From Maritimibacter sp. (GTDB lineage: Bacteria; Pseudomonadota; Alphaproteobacteria; Rhodobacterales; Rhodobacteraceae), in the NCBI GenBank assembly GCA_011389895.1, contig JAABTN010000029.1, forward strand, positions 1 to 37,560: a DNA stretch of 37,560 nt, given 5' to 3'. Positions within the stretch are counted from its first letter, which is position 1, and every line of letters starts with the position of its first letter. The translations under genes and the position numbers were made by a program. The notes beneath the pieces are model-generated. The model was given only the letters and a program-made list of their open reading frames with translations. It searched no databases and was not told the DNA's origin. Below, piece by piece: positions 36,363 through 37,560 of this stretch.

Positions 36363-37004
36363 ATGACCCGACTTCTTCCCGGCGTTCTCGCCATGGCCAC
36401 CGTCGTGGTGGCCTCGAATATTCTCGTGCAATTCCTGCTGGGCAACTGGCTCACATGGGGGGCGTTCACCTATCCCGTCGCGTTCCTTGTCACCGATGTG
36501 ATGAACCGGGTCTACGGGCCGCAGGCCGCGCGCCGCGTTGTGTTTGCGGGCTTCGTCGTCGGCGTGATCTGTTCGCTCATCGGCAGCCAGATCATGCTCA
36601 CGGGGGACGGATACGACTATGCCGCCGTGTCCCTGCGCGTCGCGCTCGGGTCCGGCATCGCGTTTCTGAGCGCGCAATTGCTTGACGTCGCGGTGTTCGA
36701 TCGCCTGCGCAACCGGACATGGTGGGCCGCCCCCCTGACCTCAACCCTCGTCGGGTCGGCGGTCGACACCGCGCTGTTCTTCACCATCGCCTTCTCCGCC
36801 ACGCTCGCCGGGCTGTTCGGCGAGAGCGTCAACATGGAGATCAACTGGGCATGGGAGAGCGTGTCTTTCCTCGGCACCGGCCCGATCGCCCCGCTCTGGG
36901 TGAGCCTCGCGTTCGCCGATTGGCTCGTCAAACTGTCGCTCGCTTTGGTCGCACTGGTGCCATTTCGTGTGCTCGTCATGAAACTTTCACCAAATCCTGC
37001 GTGA
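36363..37004 (+). CDS. yhhQ: Queuosine precursor transporter (YhhQ/VUT family)
   Basis: A 213-residue inner-membrane protein with about six helices. The sequence VASNILVQFLLGNWLTWGAFTYPVAFLVTDVMNRVYG contains the family signature F-T/P-x-x-F-x-x-TD-x-x-x-x-x-YG. A later block DTALFFTIAFSATLAG with a conserved Asp is typical as well. E. coli YhhQ imports preQ0/preQ1 for queuosine tRNA modification. The start at 36363 is chosen for the normal N-terminus; a 31-codon extension overlaps the preceding gene's end. A clear Shine-Dalgarno is not seen (CGGAAAAAACCGA lies just upstream). No preQ1 riboswitch is recognised. Confidence 0.93.
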   Translation: MTRLLPGVLAMATVVVASNILVQFLLGNWLTWGAFTYPVAFLVTDVMNRVYGPQAARRVVFAGFVVGVICSLIGSQIMLTGDGYDYAAVSLRVALGSGIAFLSAQLLDVAVFDRLRNRTWWAAPLTSTLVGSAVDTALFFTIAFSATLAGLFGESVNMEINWAWESVSFLGTGPIAPLWVSLAFADWLVKLSLALVALVPFRVLVMKLSPNPA

Positions 37005-37079
37005 AAATTCTTGACCCATACAAAATCTGTGGCACCTTTGACCTACAGCTAATTTTTCAACTGTCGAAAGGAGGTGTCC

Positions 37080-37121
37080 ATGTCTAGAGAAACTATGGTG
37101 CGAGGTGCCGGGACAAAGTAG
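37080..37121 (+). CDS. 13-residue mini-ORF with near-perfect Shine-Dalgarno
   Basis: ATG at 37080 opens a 13-codon frame (MSRETMVRGAGTK) ending in TAG at 37119-37121. The preceding AAAGGAGGTG (37067-37076) is complementary to ten bases of the 16S rRNA 3' end, the best ribosome site in the window, 3 nt from the ATG. Such a site in front of so short a frame points to a leader peptide or small protein rather than chance. I recognise no family. It lies inside the candidate structured RNA, and its Shine-Dalgarno can be masked by CACCTCC at 37191-37197. Confidence 0.5.
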   Translation: MSRETMVRGAGTK

Positions 37122-37209
37122 TCGCGTCGTGCCGGGGCAGCCCTCGGCATGGATTGCGGGCTAGGCTGGCGCAAGGCGCCTAACCGGCCCCACCTCCAGA
37201 CTTCTCGAA

Positions 37210-37234
37210 GGGCCACCGCAACGGTGGCCCTTTT
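37210..37234 (+). terminator. Strong intrinsic terminator upstream of arfB
   Basis: GGGCCACCG (37210-37218) and CGGTGGCCC (37222-37230) form a perfect 9-bp stem with a 3-nt loop, followed by TTTTCGTTT. It ends transcription running from yhhQ or from the mini-ORF RNA and lies 64 bp before the arfB start. Confidence 0.88.
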
Positions 37235-37297
37235 CGTTTGCGCCCCCGCCCGCGTATGATCGGCACAGACAGCGCACCGATGCCCTGATGGAGCCCC

Positions 37298-37560
37298 ATG
37301 ATCCACGTCACGCCCGACATCACCATCGAAGACTGGGAACTGACCGAAAGCTTCGTGCGCGCCTCGGGCCCCGGCGGGCAGAACGTGAACAAGGTGTCCA
37401 CGGCGGTCGAGCTGCGGTTCGAAGCCGAGCGGTCGCCCAACCTGCCCGACCCGGTGAAACGGCGGCTGAAACGGATCGCGGGCCGGAAATGGACGACGGA
37501 CGGCGCGCTGGTGATCTTTGTTCAGGACACCCGGTCACAGGCCCGAAACCGCGAGATCGC
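37298..37560 (+). CDS. arfB: Ribosome-rescue peptidyl-tRNA hydrolase ArfB, N-terminal part (cut by window edge)
   Basis: The first 87 codons of ArfB (YaeJ), a class I release-factor homologue that frees ribosomes stalled on non-stop mRNAs. The catalytic GGQ lies at residues 26-28 in RASGPGGQNVNKVSTAVELRF, a block that matches ArfB/ICT1 rather than RF1/RF2, and no codon-recognition domain precedes it. The basic C-terminal tail that enters the mRNA channel is beyond the window. ATG at 37298 is used since it gives the standard N-terminus; GGAG lies 8 nt upstream. No promoter is obvious in the 63 bp after the terminator. Confidence 0.93.
   Translation, partial: MIHVTPDITIEDWELTESFVRASGPGGQNVNKVSTAVELRFEAERSPNLPDPVKRRLKRIAGRKWTTDGALVIFVQDTRSQARNREI

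What the first reader, a model, noticed from the sequence alone, without database searches (positions are those of the whole stretch)
37046..37234. Terminator-ended RNA with a super-Shine-Dalgarno mini-ORF just upstream of arfB
Seen: a ten-base Shine-Dalgarno, a 13-codon ORF, two internal hairpins, a CACCTCC (37191-37197) perfectly complementary to GGAGGTG (37070-37076), and a 9-bp intrinsic terminator, all in about 190 bp. Inference: ribosome behaviour on the mini-ORF could decide whether the segment folds to mask its own ribosome site or lets transcription pass into arfB, a ribosome-rescue gene. That would be a translation-sensing attenuator for rescue capacity. Alternatively it is a free small RNA or a small-protein mRNA whose start is self-repressed.
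Basis: partly seen in the sequence, partly recalled or inferred. Interest (0 to 1): 0.72.

Follow-up and report, generated by a model that had tools for sequence, protein, structure and literature searches.

The report
Ribosome-gated small RNA of Alphaproteobacteria
This short stretch of DNA, whose relatives sit once in nearly every genome checked across its bacterial family, likely makes a small RNA whose front can pair with the ribosome's docking tail, is predicted to hide that front inside itself, and in most relatives keeps a tiny reading frame of fixed length whose protein sequence seems barely selected, so it would be a switch worked by ribosomes rather than a protein gene or a controller of its neighbour.

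Summary
The features are real, but the element is neither local nor mainly an arfB device. A covariance model from 41 relatives finds it in 137 of 150 genomes (150 genera) of the window's family, one copy each but for one weak second match. Related RNAs occur in other alphaproteobacterial orders and match Rfam CC2171 (RF01867) over its whole model, mostly below the curated cut-off. Shared plan: segment complementary to the 16S rRNA tail, mini-ORF, hairpins, terminator. In Rhodobacterales the ribosome site GGAGGU pairs with a downstream copy of the 16S tail (98.8% of cells in 41 loci; predicted masked when complete, open when nascent). The ORF is exactly 18 codons in 75 of 80 relatives, with three interchangeable stops and no TGG where 14 were expected; amino acids show almost no purifying selection (0.91). 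The window's genus has a 13-codon version, and its own mask and closing helix do not beat shuffled or swapped controls. arfB is adjacent in 62 of 80, absent nearby in 10. Likely a free-standing, ribosome-gated RNA of unknown target; transcription, translation and function are untested here.

The parts
37011..37033 (+). Conserved upstream block TTGACCCATACAAAATCTGTGGC: a -35-like TTGAC and an imperfect CACA..TGTG palindrome; possible promoter or operator
   Evidence: Conserved in same-genus loci and several other genera (alignment); the promoter scan found nothing on this strand. Weak.
37058..37238 (+). Whole RNA element as matched by covariance model R1 (142.5 bits, E 4.1e-36)
   Evidence: the window is one of the 41 sequences R1 was built from; Rfam RF01867 full-length match 37058-37231, 30.9 bits against cut-off 75
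37066..37079 (+). 16S-tail complement GAAAGGAGGTG, then TCC (ribosome site)
   Evidence: GAAAGGAGGTG followed by ATCC or GTCC in most relatives
37080..37121 (+). Mini-ORF, 13 codons plus TAG (MSRETMVRGAGTK); shorter than the 18-codon ORF usual in the family
37087..37091 (+). 5' arm (GAGAA) of the closing helix P1 within the ORF
   Evidence: for the window alone P1 is no stronger than swapped partners (-10.1 against -10.3)
37131..37148 (+). Hairpin around the GGCAGCCC motif that is common in the family
37167..37182 (+). Covarying hairpin TGGCGC-AAG-GCGCC(U)A with a bulged U
   Evidence: 31 cells changed on both sides against 16.9 +/- 2.9 in shuffles, 0 of 500
37191..37197 (+). CACCTCC: internal copy of part of the 16S tail, predicted to mask the ribosome site 37070-37076
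   Evidence: 98.8% of cells pair in 41 relatives, 98.7% in 80; not above shuffles in the window alone
37202..37206 (+). 3' arm (UUCUC) of the closing helix P1
37210..37234 (+). Intrinsic terminator GGGCCACCG-CAA-CGGTGGCCC-TTTT
   Evidence: not reported by the consensus scan
36363..37004 (+).
   Evidence: upstream in 75 of 80 fetched relatives
37298..37560 (+).

Best explanation
The stretch is likely a free-standing small-RNA gene related to Rfam CC2171: a front segment is complementary to the 16S rRNA tail of sister species, a segment about 115 bases downstream is complementary to that same ribosome site and is predicted to mask it in the finished RNA, and 30S ribosomal subunits would act as the ligand that opens it. 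Shown by sequence: the complementarity, the conserved pairing and covarying hairpin across relatives, the terminator hairpin, the single copy, and in relatives the kept start, stop and ORF length with little selection on the peptide. Inferred: while the RNA is being made, before the 3' mask exists, the ribosome site is open and a ribosome can translate the mini-ORF; once the mask is made, initiation needs a 30S whose own tail displaces it. Because the ORF length is kept and the peptide hardly is, the useful act is probably how far the ribosome travels, unfolding the RNA to a fixed point near the foot of the GGCAGCCC hairpin. What the opened RNA then does (frees its CCUCC stretch to pair with ribosome sites of other mRNAs, changes its own stability, or holds 30S subunits) is not resolved; I favour a trans-acting RNA whose active segment is exposed by ribosome passage.
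For: Near-universal and single-copy: 137 of 150 genomes of the family, each of another genus; one genome has a second weak match. Self-mask: GGAGGU with the 3' copy pairs in 98.8% of cells of 41 loci; 3' changes are almost all wobble-keeping (C/T 22/19, A/G 33/7), with 3 of 246 cells breaking a pair. Predicted unpaired fraction of GGAGGTG 0.07 complete against 0.44 nascent, lower when complete in 77 of 80; scrambling the 15-nt mask in silico gives 0.31 against 0.06, native lower in 74 of 79. Complement to the SD region against shuffles: median rank 7.5 of 200 in 44 Rhodobacterales loci, 27 of them at rank 10 or better. Structure under selection: hairpin covariation 0 of 500 shuffles. Closing helix P1: own arms -15.4 kcal/mol, arms from other lineages -9.9 +/- 0.2, n = 129. 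ORF: 18 codons in 75 of 80, stops TGA 37, TAG 27, TAA 11; TGG at codon 19 0 of 80 where 14.0 expected; 22 of 24 in the sphingomonad class also 18 codons. Peptide: substitution ratio 0.91 over 84 nearest pairs, 1.02 in codons 13-18. Start codons in 120 contig loci ATG, GTG or TTG, CTG 0, though the pattern allowed it. Varied context.
Against: No transcript, ribosome footprint or mutant was examined. In the window and its genus the complement to the SD region does not exceed shuffles (ranks 18-47 of 200 in L002-L009), the ORF is shorter, and P1 of the window is no stronger than swapped controls. Codons 2-12 show a mild deficit of amino-acid changes (0.68), so part of the peptide may matter. The strong full-length mask is a Rhodobacterales trait: in other lineages the site is predicted 0.10-0.37 unpaired when complete and changes little when nascent, and the sphingomonad class shows no excess complementarity (median rank 63 of 200, 0 of 24 at rank 10 or better). 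P1 is weak in the Bradyrhizobium-type and MSS-type classes (median p against swaps 0.26 and 0.11). In 15 of 80 loci the four letters after GGAGGTG depart from ATCC/GTCC and in 8 the leading GAAA departs. Mask pairs cannot show two-sided change because the SD letters do not vary, partly because the search patterns fixed them. A4 was aligned to the model that contains the mask, so leans towards it, and the model's terminator helix pairs in only 40.6% of A4 cells, probably a register fault. The peptide test is a crude pairwise count.
Confidence: 0.48

Rival explanations
1. It is an ordinary trans-acting small RNA: the CCUCC stretch pairs with ribosome sites of target mRNAs (as in CCUCC-type RNAs of this class), and the reading frame mainly helps it to be stable or is incidental.
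For: CAYCTCC or a close variant is conserved; CCUCC-motif sRNAs are described in alphaproteobacteria (SisA-D/alphaR8 in Caulobacter, abstract and passages of PMC12559287 seen; anti-SD sRNAs in Bartonella, passage of PMC7717549).
Against: The stretch pairs with the RNA's own ribosome site in 98.8% of cells, which explains its conservation without targets; start, stop and length of the ORF are kept.
Confidence: 0.2
2. It is a mini-mRNA whose 13-18 residue peptide is the product, with a self-repressed start.
For: Kept start, stop and length; codons 2-12 ratio 0.68. In S. meliloti a 23-residue peptide (SEP1) has the highest translation efficiency of the new sORFs (PMC10117765, passages seen); whether it is this family was not established.
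Against: Overall ratio 0.91, and 1.02 in the last six codons; 0.92 or above in the other tests by lineage, most with few pairs; peptides of different orders share little beyond Met/Val-Ser; in L083 the CCUGGAC motif is kept while its frame is shifted (my reading).
Confidence: 0.16
3. It is a translation-sensing attenuator of arfB: ribosome behaviour on the mini-ORF decides read-through into the rescue gene.
For: arfB within 200 nt in 62 of 80 loci, starting within 40 nt of the model match's end in 31; two Hyphomonadaceae loci also carry arfB nearby, though on the other strand (L037, L085).
Against: Absent from the next 1.8 kb in 10 of 80 and far in 8, replaced by other genes in loci of other orders, terminator hairpin about as stable without arfB, and no antiterminator pairing seen.
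Confidence: 0.12

Closest known systems
Rfam RF01867, CC2171 (Caulobacter sRNA)
   Same: Full-length match 1-159 at the right place in the window and in 7 of 8 further loci scanned at low threshold; same 16S-complementary segment, mini-ORF start and pre-terminator closing helix
   Different: Score 30.9 bits in the window against a cut-off of 75; Rhodobacterales members carry a 3' copy of part of the 16S tail and mostly an 18-codon ORF. The two RNA papers that mention the family (passages seen) say nothing of the 16S complement, ORF or self-mask there
rnTrpL/peTrpL of Sinorhizobium meliloti (dual-function attenuator sRNA)
   Same: Short RNA with a 14-codon ORF, acting in trans
   Different: Leaderless, with a functional peptide and linked to trpE (PMC10117765, passages); here a long SD and almost no peptide selection
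Type I toxin mRNAs with long-range masking of the ribosome site (recalled)
   Same: Complete RNA inert through 5'-3' pairing, nascent RNA translatable
   Different: No toxin-like hydrophobic peptide; single copy with near-universal distribution in the family
CCUCC-motif sRNAs SisA-D (alphaR8)
   Same: Terminated sRNA with a CCUCC stretch
   Different: No 16S-complementary segment or kept ORF mentioned in the passages seen; the CCUCC here pairs internally

Membership tests
Rfam CC2171 (RF01867) | Bit score at or above the curated cut-off of 75 | tested here: not met
   Window 30.9 bits; 4 of 18 loci scanned from various lineages reach it
Rfam CC2171 (RF01867) | Alignment over the whole model | tested here: met
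   1-159 of 159 in the window and in 7 of 8 loci scanned at low threshold, 33.8-61.7 bits; L037 had none. So: a relative, not a curated member
Rfam CC2171 (RF01867) | Closing helix between the early ORF and the segment before the terminator | tested here: inconclusive
   Clear in the CC2171-like set (84.4% paired against 33-59% when slid) and on average across lineages; weak in some lineages and in the window itself
Translation-coupled transcription attenuator | Conserved downstream regulated gene | tested here: not met
   arfB adjacent in 62 of 80, absent from 1.8 kb in 10; other genes in loci of other orders
Translation-coupled transcription attenuator | Antiterminator that competes with the terminator stem | tested here: inconclusive
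   The mask lies outside the terminator stem; no competing helix in the folds; no systematic search was made
Dual-function sRNA with functional peptide | Purifying selection on the peptide | tested here: inconclusive
   Ratio 0.91 overall, 0.68 in codons 2-12, 1.02 in 13-18
Dual-function sRNA with functional peptide | Translation in vivo | not testable with these tools
   No ribosome profiling for this organism
Trans-acting Hfq-dependent sRNA | Hfq binding and mRNA targets | not testable with these tools
   None

The most novel reading that the evidence does not exclude
Alphaproteobacteria carry one dedicated RNA that senses free 30S ribosomal subunits by direct competition between the 16S rRNA tail and the RNA's own copy of that tail. 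The reading frame is a ruler, not a message: a ribosome must travel a fixed number of codons to unfold the RNA, and the exposed copy of the 16S tail would then act on the ribosome sites of other mRNAs, so that translation capacity is fed back to translation initiation.
Probability: 0.22. Interest if true: 0.88.

Novelty: new variant of a known kind. Interest (0 to 1): 0.66.

Why it matters
A single-copy RNA kept in 137 of 150 genera of a family, with relatives in several other orders of the class, is in the range of housekeeping RNAs, yet the passages I saw give it no function. The combination seen here (long complement of the 16S tail, an internal copy of part of that tail, and a fixed-length frame with kept start and stop but little selection on the peptide) suggests a reading frame used as a mechanical ruler. 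If confirmed it would give a simple genetic handle on how cells could sense spare ribosomes with RNA alone, and it joins scattered sRNA annotations (CC2171, M. huakuii MH_s33, the unnamed element beside arfB) into one testable family.

Tried and rejected
arfB attenuator as the main role: rejected on context; terminator stability gave no support for it either. Conserved functional peptide: mostly rejected. Alternative partners of the 3' copy inside the ORF: GGAGA (columns 42-46) pairs in 86.8% and GAGGU (47-51) in 90.7% of cells against 98.8% for the ribosome site, so a competing state is possible but less well kept. Rfam hits ctRNA_p42d, BjrC68 and isrD cover the terminator hairpin and are taken as terminator resemblance. 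That the base after GGAGGTG is A or G (98 A, 21 G, 1 gap of 120) holds for pattern-selected loci; in the 80 model-selected loci C also occurs, so I do not lean on it. The class-wide pattern count (73 of 387 genomes, reversed control 0) is not a count of this RNA: in one family (f46, 4 of those 73) most matches sit before a different gene, a protein of at least 50 residues that looks secreted (28 of 30 fetched loci), and L116 is of that kind; conversely exact matching misses most members in the window's family. L018 was used but left out of A1; L108 was left out of A2 (41 of the 42 loci listed for its class) as an outlier; L038 and L054 were left out of A3. Of 137 loci, 8 without a scored terminator were left out (129 kept). 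L034 and L043 are cut by the end of the fetched stretch, so their ORF lengths are not complete. Papers: searches, judged from listings and some passages, showed no description of this RNA's function; the library holds open-licence papers only, and the original Caulobacter sRNA paper (recalled, Landt 2008) was not seen. MH_s33 in Mesorhizobium huakuii is annotated RF01867 with a 215-nt sequenced product (table passages of PMC5596092). The link to S. meliloti SEP1 (23 aa, pI 4.18) stays a lead: two searches meant to reach its family gave other families.

Full report
OBSERVATION. The RNA folds better than shuffles (z -2.9; the 3' part z -3.7). A simple consensus scan did not flag the terminator or a + strand promoter, and within the window alone the complement to the SD region is not above shuffles (rank 45 of 200).

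FAMILY. A DNA search found the spacer, whole or in part, in 17 of 61 genomes, the window's own included. In 119 of the 120 the ORF read is 31 codons or fewer, two of them cut by the end of the stretch. Of 137 loci (these and 17 from the DNA search) 129 have a terminator-like hairpin by my own score. A covariance model (R1) from 41 Rhodobacterales elements finds the RNA in 137 of 150 genomes of the family at least 90% complete, one per genome except one weak second match, and matches 20 of 21 pattern-found loci of other lineages at E below 1e-3 (rough E-values, and the shared 5' segment was the reason these loci were picked). Rfam's CC2171 (RF01867) matches the window over its full length at 30.9 bits, reaches its cut-off of 75 in 4 of 18 loci, and matches 7 of 8 scanned loci of several lineages below it. 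So the element is a divergent relative of CC2171. The Rfam 15 paper lists CC2171 among families whose structure was improved with R-scape, by one additional covarying pair (table passage of PMC11701678).

RIBOSOME SITE. The front segment is complementary to the 16S tail: 11 contiguous bases in the window, more in most relatives. GGCTGGATCACCTCCTTTC was found in 6 of 37 relatives, including 3 of 8 of the same genus but not the window's own draft (many drafts probably lack rRNA). GGAGGTG is in all 80 fetched loci; 65 of 80 continue with ATCC or GTCC and 72 of 80 begin with GAAA. Spacing and start codon are kept: 74 of 80 start 5 nt after GGAGGTG, and CTG was never used in 120 loci although the pattern allowed it.

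SELF-MASK. In 41 Rhodobacterales sequences found by DNA similarity or by the 5' pattern, GGAGGU pairs with the 3' copy in 98.8% of cells; the 3' letters change almost only between C and T opposite G, or A and G opposite U. The SD letters themselves were fixed by the search, so only the 3' side is informative. Two competing partners inside the ORF pair less often (86.8% and 90.7%). Folding predicts the site 0.07 unpaired in complete RNAs and 0.44 in RNAs cut before the mask, in the same direction in 77 of 80; scrambling the mask in silico gives 0.31 against 0.06. For the window the numbers are 0.03 and 0.36, and the duplex with the 16S tail is -25.3 kcal/mol against -15.3 for the best downstream complement. 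Against shuffles the complement is strong in Rhodobacterales as a class (median rank 7.5 of 200, n = 44), moderate in the other lineages, and absent in the sphingomonad class (median 63, n = 24) and in the window's genus (ranks 18-47). In other lineages it often lies inside the ORF, and there the predicted masking is weaker and does not depend clearly on the 3' end.

OTHER STRUCTURE. The UUGGC..GCC(U)AA hairpin covaries (31 cells changed on both sides, shuffles 16.9 +/- 2.9; in 80 loci the whole model structure has 99 against 45.7, though its terminator helix is out of register there, 40.6% paired). A helix between early ORF codons and the segment before the terminator is on average matched within lineages and not across them (-15.4 against -9.9 +/- 0.2 kcal/mol, n = 129; 84.4% paired against 33-59% when slid in 28 CC2171-like loci). 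It is weak in two lineages, and in the window it is no better than swapped partners.

READING FRAME. In 80 loci fetched from the 137 (all distinct, one identical to a sequence used to build R1), the frame is exactly 18 codons in 75; stops are TGA 37, TAG 27, TAA 11; the other two frames end at scattered places apart from early clusters. At codon 19, TGG would be expected 14.0 times from the letter frequencies and occurs 0 times. In the sphingomonad class 22 of 24 also have 18 codons (one of the other two is the unrelated L116), the Bradyrhizobium type has 14 in 6 of 6, and the other classes have mostly 20-31. Nearest-pair substitution counts over 105 distinct 18-codon ORFs give a ratio of 0.91 over the ORF, 0.68 for codons 2-12 and 1.02 for codons 13-18. 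So start, stop and length are kept and the peptide hardly is. The window's genus is an exception in length (13 codons in L002-L009), probably a derived shortening.

CONTEXT. yhhQ lies upstream in 75 of 80 loci; arfB follows within 200 nt in 62, is farther in 8 and absent from the next 1.8 kb in 10. Among 43 earlier loci arfB is within 150 nt in 28. In the loci of other orders looked at, the neighbours are different genes. In 31 of the 62 adjacent cases arfB begins within 40 nt of the end of the model match, so read-through into arfB may still matter locally.

READING. The most economical account is a free-standing, single-copy RNA gated by the ribosome: open while nascent, masked when complete, opened again by 30S subunits whose tail outcompetes the internal copy, with a fixed-length frame that sets how far the ribosome unfolds it. 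The gating and any target are inference. A sequenced product for a Mesorhizobium RNA annotated RF01867 (MH_s33, 215 nt) is in print (PMC5596092, table and text passages), so at least one family member is probably transcribed. Schrader et al. report that two earlier predicted Caulobacter ncRNAs are translated, without naming them in the passages I saw (PMC4117421).

Noticed in passing
L116, L223-L235, L237-L251: A different gene, a secreted-looking protein beginning mostly MSHGA, carries nearly the same leader (CAAC..AAAGGAGGTGATCCAATGTC) in one family (f46); three genomes of that family hold two matches of the pattern, which may be the RNA and this gene. It may have borrowed the RNA's 5' end.
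   Followed up: partly
window 37018-37033 and same-genus loci: Imperfect CACA-AAATC-TGTG palindrome upstream of the RNA, conserved in several genera of the family: promoter or operator?
   Followed up: no
L037, L085 (Hyphomonadaceae by title): arfB near a family member again, but on the opposite strand and upstream; possible old linkage of the RNA with arfB.
   Followed up: partly
L029, L039, L057, L094: Pattern matches in MAGs labelled Gemmatimonadetes/Gemmatimonadota, Acidobacteria and Woeseiaceae; binning errors or transfer.
   Followed up: no
L108:2572-2768: One element contains GGATCACCTCC, a perfect 11-base copy of the 16S tail, downstream of its ORF.
   Followed up: no
L083: The CCTGGAC motif of the CC2171-like ORF is conserved but shifted out of frame, which speaks for RNA rather than peptide conservation.
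   Followed up: partly
literature, S. meliloti SEP1 (PMC10117765): A 23-residue acidic peptide (pI 4.18) with the highest translation efficiency among new sORFs resembles in size and charge the MSSDF-type ORFs of this family (22-23 residues; pI 4.05-5.87 in 8 of 9 checked); identity not established.
   Followed up: partly
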